Source: Polytrichum commune
Taxonomy: Eukaryota; Streptophyta; Polytrichopsida; Polytrichales; Polytrichaceae
Length of the DNA: 64,000 nucleotides
Assembly (NCBI GenBank): GCA_950295325.1
Contig: OX485806.1
Span: forward strand, 6,760,001-6,824,000
Direction of reading: 5' to 3'
How positions within the stretch are numbered: the stretch's first letter is position 1; each line of letters opens with the position of its first letter. The notes under the pieces were generated by a model. That model ran no database searches. It saw only the letters and a program-made list of their open reading frames with translations, and was not told the DNA's origin. A program made the position numbers and the translations under genes. Shown here one piece after another: positions 2,591-60,105 of this stretch.

Positions 2591-3163
2591 TCATGCAGCT
2601 GAATGAAGAGGTAGCTGTCGGCCTCCGGTCCTGGACGTATCTAAAGACCTCGGTGAAGCTAGCAGTGGCATGAAATTTATAGTGACCAACCTCGGCGAAG
2701 GGCGAGCTGCAGCAAGAGTCAGCCGAGTGCTCAATGGAGCAGCATCACTCATCTCACTATCTTCAAATTCCTTGCTATCTTCATATCTGTAACCACGTTG
2801 ATATGCATCATTTGAACTTCTCAGAGGATGATGCTGCCGAGACGGATGAATATCGTCCAACGGCGCGGGCCACTGATCCGCATCGGATGAAGAAGACGTC
2901 GACTCATGAGTGTCGAACGAAAACCTTGTCACAGTTTCTTCAGAAACTGATCGCCGGCCTGTCAATTTTTGCACTACGTGAAGAAACTCCTCCGGTTCAA
3001 TTTTGTAGATTTTCGGAGAGTAGGTGTGGATGATGCGTGGCGGCTTCGCACACCCGACCCCGGTCTTGCTCACTTTCAATCCTGTTGCGGTTACTCTCCG
3101 TGCAGCGGAGGAGTAAACCGGAGGCGTAGAATTATGCACTCCAAACGCCTCGCTCGTTGCCAT
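2591..3163 (-). CDS. VQ-motif-containing protein (190 aa, single exon)
   Basis: This intronless frame encodes a 190-residue protein with the plant VQ motif FxxxVQxLTG, read as EEFLHVVQKLTGR with F60, V64, Q65, L67, T68 and G69. VQ proteins are small nuclear (sometimes plastid) cofactors that bind WRKY transcription factors and modulate defence, growth and stress responses; that role is family knowledge, not shown here. A basic, proline-containing stretch precedes the motif (KPPRIIHTYSPKIYKIEP), as in many members. A serine-rich and acidic region follows at about residues 85-140. Near the C terminus is SPRLVTINFMPLL, shared almost exactly with the second VQ gene at 33965-34441, so the two are paralogues. 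The start is the ATG at 3163-3161; the upstream sequence holds a GGTCAA (W-box on the minus strand) near 3577. The short single-exon structure is usual for the family. Confidence 0.88.
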   Translation of the reverse strand: MATSEAFGVHNSTPPVYSSAARRVTATGLKVSKTGVGCAKPPRIIHTYSPKIYKIEPEEFLHVVQKLTGRRSVSEETVTRFSFDTHESTSSSSDADQWPAPLDDIHPSRQHHPLRSSNDAYQRGYRYEDSKEFEDSEMSDAAPLSTRLTLAAARPSPRLVTINFMPLLASPRSLDTSRTGGRQLPLHSAA

Positions 3164-15111: not shown

Positions 15112-15758
15112 GGGCCACTTCGCACACGAGACTGAGAGCCCATGACCATTGCACTTCAAGGACTCTCATTGGTGGAAAAGGCGGAGCCGGTCCAAGTTCG
15201 CTTCACACTACGGTTGAGGGACCAACGGAGTATGTGAATGCAAGATGGATGTAAAGTCTACATGGATCCATGTGTGACATCAAATGGATCATGTTTCATG
15301 GTCACTTGGATTATTTTCAAAGACCATCTCTTGGAGGTAGGTCTAACACAAAACTGGGAGACCATGGCACTCCGAACATAACATTATTCAAATCTATAAC
15401 AGTGTTTTGTGGGACTGATAGTATTTTCCGAAATATTCCTCACATTTAGATTGAATGTGGGGAATATTCTACATAATATTACAGTCCCGCATAACATTGT
15501 TATGGATCTGAATAATGTTATGAACGCTCACAACTGTTGTTTTGTTCTATTGTATCATGCGCGAGGACCCGCATGAATAGAAGTTCATTGAAATAGCATT
15601 TGGTTGAGGGCTTGGTCACATATGACTTCACACTACACTTGAGGGTCCGTGACCACACTACATGATTTTGGAGGTGTGTTGGGACATCCTTTGGACACTT
15701 TCTTTTGGGCTCTCATAATTTCATGGTCGCGGCTCTTAGCTCGTGTGTGAAGTGGCCC
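15112..15758 (+). mobile_element. family A Harbinger-like MITE, copy 1 (with nested insertion)
   Basis: The ends are long imperfect inverted repeats beginning GGGCCACTTC.CACACGAG and continuing for roughly 40 bases. The flanks are TGA on the left and TAA on the right; copy 2 has TAA on both sides. A 3-bp TWA duplication and GGGCC-type ends fit PIF/Harbinger MITEs. The copy would be ~500 bp but for the 146-bp element at 15377-15522 inserted in it. It has no transposase; the internal sequence is noncoding. Confidence 0.82.
15377..15522. mobile_element. foldback MITE nested in family A copy 1
   Basis: This 146-bp insert starts CATAACATTATTC and ends GAATAATGTTATG; its halves are near-complementary over about 65 bases, so it would fold into one hairpin. 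The empty site is visible in the other family A copies, where ACTCCGAA / ACGCTCAC is continuous (reverse strand near 20180). AA (or GAA) is present on both sides, giving a 2-3 bp target duplication. Confidence 0.82.
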
Positions 15759-33599: not shown

Positions 33600-33964
33600 C
33601 CGCTGCTCTGTCTGTTTTGTGAAGAATTAATTCGTCTTTCGCTAGCCAGCTGGTTTGCAAGAGGCACGTGAGCGAATAGTACTCAAGTGCATTTGGTGTG
33701 AGTAAGTGATCTTCTTCTTGCGGCGTTACTGAGAGTGATCTCTGATAACGAGTGAGAGGATTACTGAGCTTCCTTTGAAGTAGTTACGAGGCTCTGATCC
33801 ACGGTCGAGTCTTCAACCTCCTGCTTCGTAAGGTATCGTTTGAATTGCTTAAACCAGTCTCTATCGATAATGAGCTTCGACCTTTCGTGAAAAGGTTACA
33901 GCAGGCCGCAAAGGGATCTTGCTTGTGTAATCAACCGTTGGCGTCGTCCGACTGAACTAAATTG

Positions 33965-34441
33965 ATGGCGAGGAAATCATCCCAATTACATGATCAGGCT
34001 ATCCGCTGCAGATCAACATCCTCCTGCACACATAAAGCAGCAGCAGGGCTGAAAATGAACAGGAGCGGAGTAGCAGGAGCCCGCAGCAAACCTGCACCAC
34101 GAATCTTCTACACGTTCTCTCCGAAAGTTTACAAAATTCAGCCCGAGGAGTTTCTGACTCTAGTCCAGAGACTGACGGGACAATCCCCGAAGAAAGAGAT
34201 CACTACTATAGACTTTGGAATTGAAACTTCATCCTCTTCATTTAACTCCAAGGAGATCTCGGCGGGAAATACGAGTTCAACCTACGATCCACCAACACAG
34301 GAAGATGATTATGAATTCGACAGTGCCTACTCTGCGGCGAAGAGCTGTACTGGCGAGATTGTTTCACCAATCGAGACTCGACTGCTTGCAGCCCTCCCTT
34401 CACCGCGTCTTGTTACTCTGAACTTCTTGCCTCTGTTGTGA
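33965..34441 (+). CDS. VQ-motif-containing protein (158 aa, single exon)
   Basis: The intronless frame encodes 158 residues with the VQ motif EEFLTLVQRLTGQ (F63, V67, Q68, L70, T71, G72). The family acts as nuclear cofactors of WRKY factors; the specific process controlled here cannot be read from sequence. The basic lead-in KPAPRIFYTFSPKVYKIQP and the C-terminal SPRLVTLNFLPLL closely match the minus-strand VQ gene at 2591-3163 (IIHTYSPKIYKIEP and SPRLVTINFMPLL). The linker between is serine- and acid-rich and poorly conserved. The protein is about 30 residues shorter, mostly because it ends right after the shared motif. I chose the ATG at 33965; the frame is open a few codons upstream without another ATG. 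It is probably a dispersed duplicate, since the copies lie 31 kb apart on opposite strands. Confidence 0.88.
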   Translation: MARKSSQLHDQAIRCRSTSSCTHKAAAGLKMNRSGVAGARSKPAPRIFYTFSPKVYKIQPEEFLTLVQRLTGQSPKKEITTIDFGIETSSSSFNSKEISAGNTSSTYDPPTQEDDYEFDSAYSAAKSCTGEIVSPIETRLLAALPSPRLVTLNFLPLL

Positions 34442-42266: not shown

Positions 42267-42657
42267 TTTTGTACTCATGAAACATCATAGTATTGCACGT
42301 GGGGCCAAATCTGCTTTTTTTCTTTTACCTGTCCTCCCTTGGTCCTCATGTCCTGACTCCCTTAAATCCTAAACCCTAACTTAAATTGCTTTGCTCGTGT
42401 TTCCCTGTAGTCCTATTTCCTCTCTTTGCTCCCAGCTTTTCTTGAGTATTATAACCTCCTGTATGACCATCCAAGCCTGCTGTGATCTCATCAATGATCA
42501 TGTTCTGGGCAAATTTTTCAAGTATTCAAGGGAGTCCACTTAATTCAAAGCTTCTCCTTTTAATTAATATGTAGCTACTTTACTTACATGCTAATAATAA
42601 TTCACTCTGTTTCAGTGTCCATGGAGTTTTTTGGGCCATAATTGGTCAAAATCTTAG

Positions 42658-42788
42658 TCAACACTTAGTGTTTGTTCAATGGGCTCTCGGAATGTAACAG
42701 TTGGATGCTCGAAAAGATGAGCAACTCATCTTTTCGAGCATCCAACTGTTACATTCCGAGAGCCCATTGAACAAACACTAAGTGTTGA
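42658..42788. repeat. perfect inverted repeat: 64-bp arms, 3-base spacer
   Basis: Bases 42658-42721 are the exact reverse complement of 42725-42788, with only CAA between. The arm starts TCAACACTTAGTGTTTGTTC and ends GCTCGAAAAGATGAG. No arm mismatches were found. It sits inside a family D MITE. Transcription would yield a near-ideal 64-bp RNA hairpin; in DNA it could extrude a cruciform. It may be a very recent rearrangement, a small-RNA source or an assembly or template-switch artefact. Confidence 0.92.
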
Positions 42789-42967
42789 GTAATATTATGG
42801 TGTTTCCAAGTCCAACCAGTTACATGTTGCAATCTGTTGGTTGATCTTTAGTAATTTGAGGTGTATTTCATGGATTCCTCTAAAATGATCGGTTATTTTC
42901 CTAAAGTCTTGAACTTCGACCAGTTATTTTTCAAACTCAACCAGTTCCTTTGTAACTACATTTTTTT

Positions 42968-43170
42968 TTGTCCAATTAGTTTGGGTTACCATTTGGAGTT
43001 ACACATTGCTATAACATATCACTAAGAGTATCATTATTTAACCAAATAACATAAATAGTTTGTGTACACACTAAAGACTATGATATAACTTGGCTTGTAA
43101 GAAACGATGTTGTCCGTGAAAAGTTATAGCAACACGTAACTCTGAATGGTAACCCACACTAATTAGACAA
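42968..43170. mobile_element. family C foldback MITE, copy 2
   Basis: Left TTGTCCAATTAG.TTGGGTTACCATT and right end reverse complement TTGTCTAATTAGTGTGGGTTACCATT pair over ~50 bases. It is inserted in family D copy 1 just after GTAACTA, interrupting the phrase GTAACTA..GCCGGTTCTCCCC seen whole in other copies. The likely target duplication is TA or CTA. Confidence 0.75.
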
Positions 43171-43289: not shown

Positions 43290-43533
43290 GGCCGGGGATT
43301 CGTGGCACTCACTAAAAATCATCCGTGCGGATGAAAAAAACACAGGAATCATCTAAATGGCTATTTTTGGGCAATTTGATTCCGGAAATAGAGTCAAAGG
43401 CCCCGAATTAGTCTAGTGACGTCACATTTGAATGAATCGGCCCTCAACCCCATAGGGGGGCTTTTTTTATTGGAGCCACTTCATCCACGATATCTTGGAT
43501 GGATGATTTTTAGTGAGTGCCACGAATCCCCAG
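43290..43533. mobile_element. Mutator-like MITE with 11-bp target duplication
   Basis: A ~244-bp element has ~34-bp terminal inverted repeats (left GGCCGGGGATTCGTGGCACT, continuing to ATCATCC; right inverted, with one or two changes). CCTGGATCAAG is present on both sides, at 43279-43289 and 43534-43544. A 9-11 bp duplication is typical of Mutator-like elements. The interior is noncoding. The near-identity of the ends and of the duplication suggests a fairly recent insertion. Confidence 0.85.
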
Positions 43534-43691
43534 CCTGGATCAAGTACACCATACAGGTGCGTTTTCTAAATTCATAGCTAAAATCTTGTATGTTCCAATA
43601 AGAACTAATTGCAAAACAAATTGGTGGAGCGGAAGAGGCTATAACAGCAGAGCGGCTGGTTCCCTAAACAGATGACTAAAGAGGTGATAAC

Positions 43692-44471: not shown

Positions 44472-44692
44472 CCGGGAAGTTTTTGGGCATAGTCAGTCAA
44501 GATCCTAGTGATTCTAAATCCAGCCGGTTACATGTTGACATCTTCCAGTTTTGCTTTCATTCATTTGAGGTATATTCTATAGATTCCTCTAAATTGATCG
44601 GTAATTCTCCTAAAGTCTCCAACTTCAACCAATTATTTCTCAAACTCAACCAGCTCATCTGTAACTAACCGCTGGTTCTTCCCGGACATAGG
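44472..44692 (+). mobile_element. family D MITE, copy 2
   Basis: Runs from GGGAAGTTTTTGGGCATA to GCTGGTTCTTCCCGG and aligns along its whole length with the reverse of 63091-63301. One AGCCGGTTA remains near 44523 while other AACCGGTT sites have changed. Confidence 0.7.
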
Positions 44693-49976: not shown

Positions 49977-52900
49977 TCACCATACATCACCAGCAGCAAT
50001 AACTTCAAATATTCGTCGAACTGCAAAAGAATTGCAGAACACACAAAATTACATAAGGGGGACCCTTCAGTATAAAGAAGCCAGCAAACCTATGATTTAG
50101 GTTTACAGACAAGCACAAATTCAAAGTCAAAAGCTTAAAGGACCTACATACAGGCAGTTATTAACAGCTCTATAAATAATTAACAGATTCCAGAAAAGGT
50201 AAAAATAAGGGATGGTTGGAGAAATAGAGTTTGATAAAAGGTTGGCATGTCCTGCCCAATGCAGTATAAGGGACTCTAAAAACGAAAACCCTCCTTTTTA
50301 TAGGTCATGGTAGCTATTCTAGATAAAATTGCTTTACATTGTGTATGGCGTTAAGTGCCTGCTGTTGATGTCTTTGAGAATTTCATCCAATTTATATATA
50401 CCACAGAGCTTGGTCCAGTCTTGAAACTTACATCACATGAAATCAGCTTATTTTATGAATTGATATGAAAAGCATAGGAGTCCCATTACCATCAGAAGAA
50501 TGAGTAAAAAAAGTGTGCAGGAGGAACATCTGTAAGCACATGCAAAGAAGAGTGCATGGGGGCGGTGCAAATTGAACCTTCGTTAGGTGGCAAATTTGGT
50601 TGATCAGCAAGTACTGATTGCAGAGCGGACACATCCTCACCCCTGAAAATTCATCACGGCCTATTGTTAGAGAGATTTGGTTGCATGAAATAACCAACAG
50701 ACTTCCCATCTTACACCCGAAAGCTTGGAGAAAACTTACGCATTCTTGGCAGACAATATCCCAATTCTGTAAACAGTTAATGTAATGTGCTTGATTCACC
50801 ATAAATGAGCTGTGTTGTTGTCCCCACTAGATTGGACCATTGAGATCACTCACTAAGACCTGACTTCTAAGTCTCTTCTAGCATGAAGAACAGCTCCTAG
50901 TGTACCACAAGAAATAGTCCATTTCCTCAATTTAGGGGTCCATTCAATTTAAAACCCTGCCTCCAATCAAAAAAGGACCAACTCCCATAGAAAAGTCCCA
51001 TTGAGTTAAAGGATAACTCTAATATACAACTTGAAGCACTTAAGATTAAAGGTGTGAATCTTACCTAGACTCGTACGAGAGAGATCGAATTATAGCAACC
51101 TTCAAATTATGCCTGTGCAGCACAGTTGCACTACTTAGTAATGTCTGGGAAAAACCTTTTCAGCAGATGCTCAACTCTGCATTGCAAAGTTCCTCCACCC
51201 AAATGCTTCTCAACCAGTGTTCAGGGAGATTTTCGGACTTAATTGCTCAAAATCCCAGTGTTCCCAAGTCCAACCAGTTACATGTTGTGATTTCCAGTAT
51301 TGCTTTAATAATTTGAGGTACATTCCACAGACTCCTTTGAAATGATCAGTCATTTTCCTGAAGTCTTGAACTTCAACCGGTTATTTCTCAAACTTAACTA
51401 TTTCATCTGTAACTAGCAGCCGGTTCTCCCTGTTCATTGGTCTCAACTTGAACAGTACAAATGTCAGCATTGCTATTAGGTTCAACCTACAAGTGATACA
51501 GATCAAGATGAGGTAAATTAAAGGAGTGCTTACTCATCTCGATGCATTATGTACAAATTTTGTAGGCCCTCCACACAGTCATTAAGACTTGGCCTTGGTC
51601 CAACCCGTTGCTCTGCTTGCTTCACTGTGGCCTTCTCCGCTTTCAATAGCTGGAAACCATCACGGGAAAGCTTTTCAAACTGCTTGACGATTTTTTCCAT
51701 CTCAGCCCTGCATCACACAAATTCATCAATTGGCTTCCTTTTGCTTGCTGAATTCAGCAGGAGAGCTCTATAATTCATGGGCTCTGAATTTAAATGACTA
51801 TGACCTCACTCTTTGCCTCATCATTTCTTGCTCATGGTTGGTAGATGTAATCCAGAGGCAAAAATGGAAGTAAATGAGCATGCAGCCTAAACCCTATTCC
51901 TAAGCCCTTGCTAGGTTCAAATTGCTCAATTGTTTGTCTGACTGGTTCAGTGTGTACAAGAAAACTGACAGAAGTAGACGAAGTAGATTTCCTTACAAAG
52001 TTGAATGCATTGAGCGCAATATGGATTCCAGTTGCTCAATTTGCATAGCTGGCAAGGCACGGGTCATGGACTTCACGTCTCCCAGGATTCCATAGTTTTT
52101 CACATCACACAGCACCTGCGAAAAAAAGTCTCGTTAGCTTCTTTAGTTTAATCCCCCCAAAAAACACCATAACCATCGTAGGGTATGTGAGCCTTATGTG
52201 GTCACTCTTGTTAACTCATTGCACACCTACATTCTAATGGTACCTGACACAACATACTGTTAAGAATGGGCACTAAATACACACTTCTTACAATAAGATT
52301 AGACTATGCATTCAAAATGTAGACACCATTATGGGTTCAATAGCTAACACAATTGTGAATCTCTATGTGATCATTTCAAGAGAACGAGAATCCTCGCTTT
52401 GACCTGTTATAACTTCATATCTCAACTTTGATTTTGGAACTTGAAAATACAGTCTTCGTGATTCACAATTGCTACCCGGACCAGAAGAGACAGTTCCCAA
52501 TCCAATCCAACTACCAGAATTGTATGTGGAATCCATGCACGGGGCCACATATCTTAATCCTCAGACACCAATTATTGTGCAGAGGGAGACTAAGGTATGC
52601 AGGCCTTACTCGGTTACATTTCTTAATCAGACACTTGTATTTAAATGGTGAGTGGTTAGATGTGGATGTAAGAACAGATACCGAAAGACATGTGTTTAAA
52701 GAATTTGAACTACAAGCTCAAAATTTACTAACCATTCTAGGCTTAATAGTCAACATAATTGGGGGGACTTATATGACCATTCAATGAGCACAAAATCATC
52801 ACTTTGACAATGAATAAGATATCCATATGGGCTCCAAAACCTATAAGGAAAATGACAACAGCCACGATTTGGATTTGTCCGTCATCTCGCGCTGATTGCG

Positions 52901-59925: not shown

Positions 59926-60105
59926 TACGGGCCAACCAGTTACATGTTGACATCCTCCAATTTTCCTTTATTAAGTTGGGGTATATTCTATAAATTCCTC
60001 TAACATGCTCGGTAATTTTCCTGCAGTCTTGAACTTCCACCGGTTATGTCTCAAAATCATCCGGTAGTTTTGTAACTAACTGCCGGTTCTCCCCAATTGT
60101 AGTTC
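59926..60105 (+). mobile_element. family D MITE, copy 5
   Basis: Runs from GGGCCAACCAGTTACATGTT to GCCGGTTCTCCCC. It retains CACCGGTTATG and ATCCGGTAG variants of the internal CCGG motifs. The outer left ~30 bases are missing. Confidence 0.7.

What the first reader, a model, noticed from the sequence alone, without database searches (positions are those of the whole stretch)
42658..42788. Perfect 64-bp inverted repeat with a 3-base spacer inside a MITE
Every other foldback in the window has diverged arms, but this one has no arm mismatch. It is absent from the other family D copies at the same position, so it was added later. It could be a fresh template-switch event, the seed of a hairpin small RNA, or an assembly artefact.
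Basis: seen in the sequence. Interest (0 to 1): 0.72.

Follow-up and report, generated by a model that had tools for sequence, protein, structure and literature searches.

The report
Hairpin transposon with re-matched arms
A short, long-silent jumping-gene fragment shaped like a hairpin seems to have had one of its two worn arms rewritten as an exact mirror copy of the other, a known kind of DNA-copying slip seen here at unusual length.

Summary
In detail: 42658-42721 and 42725-42788 are perfectly complementary over 64 bp around a CAA spacer. But the hairpin is not a novelty grown inside a family D MITE. It is itself a MITE of a separate 157-bp palindromic family (89 other copies read; ends CATAACATTACTCA; 2-bp target duplication), inserted into a family D repeat. 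In 74 main-family copies the arms have diverged independently: arm identity inside a copy (0.778) equals that between copies (0.774; 602 of 5000 shuffles as high). The window copy has as many derived sites as the rest (7 of 60 per arm; others mean 7.6), yet all 7 are mirrored in both arms. None of 86 usable copies has a perfect run over 30 bp. Perfect arms therefore do not mean a young insertion. One arm was most likely rewritten from the other by a fold-back template switch (quasipalindrome-to-palindrome conversion), late in the family's history. A 12-bp loss at the left end, between TCA repeats, could be the return point of the same event. A 12-copy subfamily with mirrored changes suggests re-matching also happened in a source element. 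Small-RNA function is untested; an assembly artefact is unlikely but not excluded.

The parts
42613..42658 (+). left part of the family D host repeat, ending with the left copy of the inferred 2-bp target duplication (GT, 42657-42658; the junction is ambiguous by the TCA repeat)
   Evidence: matches 51215-51254 and lines up with uninterrupted copies at 44.5, 51.2, 58.5 and 63.2 kb
42659..42799 (+). hairpin MITE copy W, 141 bp left of a 157-bp family element; its first 12 bp are missing and its centre is 4 bp shorter
   Evidence: alignment to other copies; nhmmer hits on both strands
42658..42721 (+). left arm of the perfect palindrome
   Evidence: 64 of 64 pairs
42722..42724 (.). spacer CAA; 7 nt (CANGAGA) in the family, so 4 nt shorter here
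42725..42788 (+). right arm of the perfect palindrome
   Evidence: 64 of 64 pairs
42788..42799 (+). intact right terminus of the MITE, AGTAATATTATG (reverse complement CATAATATTACT); its left counterpart is missing
   Evidence: family termini
42800..42958 (+). right part of the family D host repeat, beginning with the right GT of the inferred target duplication
   Evidence: 80.6% to 51258-51415 and 80% to 44508-44667

Best explanation
The feature is an old copy of a 157-bp palindromic (hairpin) MITE that inserted long ago into a family D repeat and decayed at the family's normal rate. Later its worn, imperfect hairpin caused a fold-back template switch during DNA synthesis. The nascent strand copied one arm, folded back at the loop, copied that arm again as its reverse complement in place of the other arm, then returned to the template. 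The mismatches vanished at once, so substitutions of the template arm now appear in both arms. Returning at the second of two TCA (TGA on the other strand) repeats would also explain the 12 bp lost at the left end, which would make the right arm the template. Shown: MITE membership, typical divergence, mirrored changes, perfect arms, absence of the 12 bp. Inferred: that the arms were unmatched here before, polymerase fold-back as the agent, one single event, direction of copying. The 4-nt shorter loop is not explained in detail.
For: Main-family copies: arm identity inside a copy 0.778, between copies 0.774, 602 of 5000 shuffles as high, n = 74. Longest perfect run: W 61 consensus-aligned positions (64 pairs by direct count), others at most 30 in 86 loci, cross-locus pairs at most 36 in 7310. 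W has 7 derived sites of 60 in each arm and all 7 are mirrored; in the 74 main copies 17.5% of left-arm derived sites are mirrored, at most 5 in one copy. Chance that 60 pairs all match with independent arms: log10 = -8.4. W's divergence is ordinary: by derived arm sites 31 of 71 copies are as close or closer to consensus, by identity over sites 13-157 20 of 71. Nearest full-length relatives are 80-82% identical; a 40-mer of the arm with up to 3 mismatches is found only in W's own two arms; the arm alone finds at most 87-88% over 57 bases or more, or 92% over 50. Zero differences in 64 pairs puts the event within about 2.3% divergence per arm (95% bound), while the least diverged of 71 other copies is 7% from consensus and the best consensus hit in the genome search was 92%. 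So the event looks younger than the last transposition seen and would have happened in place.
Against: No pre-event sequence of this locus was seen: the search found no duplicate of the locus and no related genome is held. The template arm cannot be told from arm-specific sites (log10 likelihood -10.6 left-type, -11.4 right-type). The 4-nt shorter loop is not a direct prediction of a simple fold-back. Three of W's seven derived states are common variants in the family (sites 19, 33, 56), and cross-locus arm pairs can also reach 7 mirrored states (the maximum), so the count of 7 alone is not unique. Other copies give no sign of arm re-matching once compared with nearest neighbours, so this is one case, not a rate.
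Confidence: 0.7

Rival explanations
1. Arm re-matching happened in a source element, which then transposed once to this place. The perfect hairpin was inserted ready-made and the source is lost or not assembled.
For: It seems to have happened in a source at least once: a 12-copy subfamily carries the same block of changes, in both arms in 8 copies (table 8/1/3/74 over 86 copies, Fisher p = 2.7e-8).
Against: No relative of W above about 82% full length, none but W itself within 3 mismatches of a 40-mer. Of 71 copies none is closer than 7% to consensus, so the family looks silent in the time allowed for the event. Each search scored only about 40 candidates, and gaps or withheld stretches were not seen.
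Confidence: 0.17
2. Arms were equalised by mismatch repair of an extruded cruciform or hairpin, or by gene conversion between arms, rather than by polymerase template switching.
For: Gives the same mirrored product. W carries the state commoner in right arms at site 20 and the state commoner in left arms at site 66, in both arms, as a mosaic repair might leave.
Against: The arm-specific sites are too weak to show a mosaic. It does not predict the 12-bp loss at the arm's edge.
Confidence: 0.08
3. A genuinely young insertion of a perfect master hairpin.
For: Perfect arms are what a fresh palindromic MITE would show.
Against: W has as many derived sites as other copies (7 of 60 per arm against means of 7.57 and 7.61) and no near-identical sibling was found.
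Confidence: 0.02
4. Assembly or polishing artefact.
For: Palindromes are error-prone and no reads could be checked.
Against: The palindrome is in register with the MITE family in both arms and keeps the right terminus and a fitting GT duplication; an inverted read chimera would not be expected to do that.
Confidence: 0.03

Closest known systems
Quasipalindrome-to-palindrome conversion by template switching (yeast: PMC3820800 and PMC8604942, passages seen; bacteria: PMC7202029, start of abstract in a listing only)
   Same: An imperfect inverted repeat becomes perfect, several clustered changes at once, short spacer, fold-back or sister-strand template.
   Different: Events described in the passages I saw make perfect arms of 5-8 bp (PMC3820800) and 8-16 bp (PMC8604942); here 64 bp, inside a transposon of a probable plant genome, inferred from family statistics rather than from parent and child strains.
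Template switching that creates and maintains RNA hairpin stems (PMC8794818; passages and the Discussion section seen)
   Same: Explains perfect stems and mirrored compensatory changes by one copying event.
   Different: There ribosomal RNA and microRNA genes; their largest pattern, up to 59 bp, failed their quality control. Here a MITE with no known RNA role.
Long perfect inverted repeats in Nematomorpha mitochondrial genes (PMC6649704, passages seen)
   Same: Long perfect arms (up to 142 bp); template switching is offered there as one possible mechanism.
   Different: Mitochondrial coding sequence, 110 repeats in four genomes; here a single nuclear MITE copy.
Hairpin (foldback) MITEs of plants (recalled)
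   Same: Short, near-palindromic, many copies, terminal inverted repeats, short target duplication.
   Different: Duplication of 2 bp of varied sequence, unlike the TA of Stowaway and the 3 bp of Tourist (recalled); I could not name the family; one copy has perfect arms despite ordinary divergence.

Membership tests
Hairpin MITE family (157-bp consensus, CATAACATTACTCA ends) | many dispersed copies with the same termini | tested here: met
   89 other copies read, 86 usable for arm comparison; 452-576 first-look candidates, about 40 scored; W keeps the right terminus
Hairpin MITE family (157-bp consensus, CATAACATTACTCA ends) | 2-bp target-site duplication | tested here: met
   37 of the 48 copies that align to both consensus termini (71 examined) have identical 2-bp flanks, about 3 expected by chance; in W inferred as GT from empty sites, given the 12-bp loss
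Hairpin MITE family (157-bp consensus, CATAACATTACTCA ends) | mobilised by a transposase encoded elsewhere | not tested
   no search for an autonomous partner was made
Stowaway or Tourist MITE | TA or 3-bp (TWA) target duplication (recalled) | tested here: not met
   family level: 2-bp duplications of 11 different dinucleotides, TA in 5 of 37; 3-bp identity in 1 of 48
Quasipalindrome-to-palindrome template switch | imperfect inverted repeat before the event | tested here: inconclusive
   all 86 usable relatives have imperfect arms, mean identity 0.782, highest 0.903; the earlier state of this locus itself is inferred
Quasipalindrome-to-palindrome template switch | changes in one arm copied from the other | tested here: met
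   7 of 7 derived sites mirrored, no unmirrored site in 60 pairs; that it happened all at once is inferred
Quasipalindrome-to-palindrome template switch | parent and child sequences of the same locus | not testable with these tools
   no related genome is held for G000
MIRNA or hairpin small-RNA gene | precise small RNAs from the stem | not testable with these tools
   no expression data; the Rfam scan of the window gave 0 matches at gathering thresholds

The most novel reading that the evidence does not exclude
Long fold-back template switches now and then restore hairpin MITEs to perfection, both in silent copies (this one) and in source elements (the 12-copy mirrored subfamily). Palindromy of such families would then be renewed by replication errors rather than kept only by the needs of the transposase, and old MITEs could suddenly become perfect small-RNA-grade hairpins.
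Probability: 0.3. Interest if true: 0.6.

Novelty: new member of a known kind. Interest (0 to 1): 0.36.

Why it matters
It separates two things easily read as one: perfect arms and recent insertion. Arm identity is a tempting clock for hairpin elements; this copy indicates that it can be reset. It also offers a long natural example of arm re-matching in a probable plant genome, and a general test (arm identity inside copies against between copies) that can be run on any hairpin MITE family to estimate how often this happens and how perfect hairpins for small RNAs arise.

Tried and rejected
Recent insertion of a perfect master: disfavoured, because W has as many derived sites as other copies and no near-identical sibling was found.

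General arm re-matching across the family: not supported. Long perfect runs in other copies looked in excess against random cross-pairs (11 of 71 at 20 or more, 4.2 expected), but are about as frequent between nearest-neighbour copies. The inside-copy excess of arm identity was 402 of 2000 shuffles in the first 39 copies, 142 of 5000 in 71 (147 of 5000 for mirrored sites), 0 of 5000 in 86. The last set had been enriched by a search with a subfamily copy. Without the 12 subfamily copies it is 602 of 5000 in 74. Inside the subfamily it is 44 of 5000 in 12 copies, which may be nested structure or short re-matching; not resolved.

Locus pairs with near-identical elements as before/after cases: L002/L028 (665 alignment columns, flanks included, 94.3%) differ at 7 element sites: one mirrored C-to-T pair (2 sites), 3 sites where the change matches the other arm, 2 sites where it does not; suggestive only. 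L057/L060 and L012/L040 show no mirrored pair.

Which arm was the template: not resolved. A covariance model was built (its predicted structure had only 25 pairs) and not used for a search. Pfam on 9 of the 13 ORFs found only two VQ-motif proteins. A paper search for the terminal sequence gave nothing relevant by title. No paper on arm re-matching in MITEs showed up by title in the listings (one search showed 30 of 33); that does not show absence from print.

Rows dropped: L095, L107, L108 (fewer than 50 pairs) from the counts; L033 left out of the consensus alignment for its length.

Full report
WHAT IS THERE. The two arms 42658-42721 and 42725-42788 are reverse complements over 64 of 64 positions with spacer CAA; beyond that the match continues weakly to 75 nt. 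As single-stranded DNA the stretch folds at -83.6 kcal/mol against -14.4 (sd 2.85) for 200 shuffles. In 264 kb scanned (the window and 20 pieces of 10 kb that I placed over seven chromosome-sized contigs) nothing comes near it; the next longest perfect arm run is 26.

IT IS A MITE OF ITS OWN FAMILY. Searching the genome with 42600-42850 returned about 40 places, nearly all of them matching in both orientations, that is, other palindromes. Further searches and one copy met by chance in the sampled pieces (L078) brought the copies read to 89 besides W. Only about 40 candidates were scored per search, of up to 576, so the family is larger. The consensus is 157 bp, begins and ends with CATAACATTACTCA, and has a 7-nt centre CANGAGA. 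Of 48 copies that align to both termini (71 examined), 37 have identical 2-bp flanks, 3 expected; the dinucleotide varies. So this is a terminal-inverted-repeat MITE with a 2-bp target duplication. A sibling family with the same end CATAACATTA and an AA duplication lies at 15377-15522 of the window.

THE INSERTION. The copy sits in a family D repeat whose other copies near 44508, 51258, 58535 and 63261 (reverse) run through the site without it; a fifth copy, at 59932, cannot be aligned on the left. Host sequence reads ...ATCTTAGT before and GTGTTTCC after the element, and ...CTAGTGTTT... or the like in empty copies, which fits a GT duplication with loss of the first 12 bp of the element between TCA repeats. 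The host 12-mer beside the junction matches the lost end at 9 of 12 positions, a level reached by 57 of 63,988 window 12-mers. That explains the weak continuation of the palindrome to 75 nt and may have helped the loss.

THE ANOMALY. In an old palindromic family each arm should pick up its own mutations. That is what the other copies show. In the first 39 copies arm identity inside a copy was 0.774 and between copies 0.770, 402 of 2000 shuffles as high. In the 74 main-family copies the figures are 0.778 and 0.774, 602 of 5000. Copy W breaks this rule. It differs from both arm consensuses at 7 of 60 sites in each arm, like the rest (means 7.57 and 7.61), and all 7 are the same in both arms; elsewhere 17.5% of left-arm derived sites are mirrored and no main copy has more than 5. 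Four of the seven states are rare in the family (sites 22, 39, 48, 71: 7 of 141, 14 of 142, 12 of 142 and 3 of 140 arms; my sums of counts); three (sites 19, 33, 56) are common variants. With independent arms the chance that 60 pairs all match is about 10 to the -8.4. The longest perfect run in 86 other copies is 30, and in 7310 cross-locus pairs 36; W has 61 consensus-aligned positions, 64 by direct count. Against: random cross-locus arm pairs can reach 7 mirrored states, so the number 7 alone is not unique; what sets W apart is that it has no unmirrored site in those 60 pairs.

TIMING. Zero differences in 64 pairs bounds the divergence per arm since the event at about 2.3% (95%). The least diverged of 71 other copies is 7% from consensus and the median is 14%. 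W itself is ordinary: 31 of 71 copies are as close or closer by derived arm sites, 20 of 71 by identity over sites 13-157. W has no close sibling among the places scored: nearest full-length relatives 80-82%, a 40-mer with up to 3 mismatches only in its own two arms, arm alone at most 87-88% over 57 or more bases or 92% over 50. The simplest order is: family burst, decay, silence, and then re-matching of this one copy in place. The bound assumes equal rates for all copies and an unbiased consensus; the consensus came from copies found by likeness to W and included W as a row.

MECHANISM. Published work shows or infers that polymerases turn imperfect inverted repeats into perfect ones by switching template to the other arm: PMC3820800 (passages seen; perfect repeats of 5-8 bp), PMC8604942 (passages seen; arms of 8-16 bp), PMC8794818 (passages and Discussion seen; patterns up to 59 bp, the longest failing their quality control), PMC7954356 (passages seen; suggests that some great-ape events are hairpin-mediated quasipalindrome-to-palindrome conversions). 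The same kind of event fits here: prime at the loop, copy one arm onto the other, return at the edge. If the return used the second TGA of the other strand, the 12-bp loss falls out of the same event and the right arm was the template. The arm-specific sites neither support nor oppose this (log10 likelihood -10.6 left-type against -11.4 right-type). The 4-nt shorter loop remains without a specific explanation. Mismatch repair in an extruded cruciform would give a similar product.

A SECOND, OLDER CASE. Twelve copies form a subfamily in which a block of changes (consensus CTCACTTCTC in place of CCCATTGTTT or CCTACTGTTT) is present in both arms (8 copies in both arms, 4 in one, 74 in neither; Fisher p = 2.7e-8; the set was enriched by a search with a subfamily copy). 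Its two arm consensuses also agree at three sites (20, 22, 66) where the main family's two arms differ, but still differ at sites 28, 42 and 71. This points to arm re-matching, perhaps partial, in the source element of that subfamily. Other routes, such as selection on both ends, are not excluded.

RESULTS AGAINST A BROADER CLAIM. Apart from W and the subfamily I found no copy that needs re-matching; apparent long runs in other copies are about as frequent between nearest-neighbour copies. Inside the subfamily arms of one copy are more alike than arms of different copies (0.808 against 0.785, 44 of 5000 shuffles, n = 12), which I could not resolve. So the rate is low, or most events are short and invisible here.

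CONTEXT. No Rfam family matches the window at gathering thresholds. Whether the hairpin is transcribed is unknown.

VERDICT. A real feature, correctly seen, partly misread: a hairpin MITE copy of ordinary divergence whose arms were re-matched by what is most likely one fold-back template switch. The kind of event is known; this is a long example in an old transposon copy.

Noticed in passing
window 15377-15522: A second hairpin element with the same terminal CATAACATTA and a 2-bp AA duplication: a sibling MITE family; a similar element at L086:9843-9998.
   Followed up: partly
L036, L064, L070, L098-L102 (both arms); L078, L097, L103, L104 (one arm): A subfamily of the hairpin MITE with a mirrored block of changes, pointing to arm re-matching in its source element.
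   Followed up: partly
L002 (C5:7.26 Mb) and L028 (C5:7.20 Mb): Two loci of 94.3% identity, flanks included; of 7 element sites that differ, two form a mirrored pair and three match the other arm: a possible small re-matching event.
   Followed up: partly
window 43290-43324 and 43501-43535: A 35-nt inverted repeat, 97% complementary, 176 nt apart, close to the hairpin: possible ends of another transposon.
   Followed up: no
window 2591-3163 (-) and 33962-34441 (+): Two ORFs with VQ motifs (Pfam PF05678), perhaps paralogues.
   Followed up: no
G000 C2:34770801-34771739: Two hairpin MITE arm matches and one full copy (L041) within 1 kb: a local cluster or array.
   Followed up: no
window 42968-43170: A further foldback (73-nt arms, 77%) follows directly beside the family D copy; a better preserved palindrome with a similar arm start lies at L078:3231-3413 (65-nt arms, 94%).
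   Followed up: no
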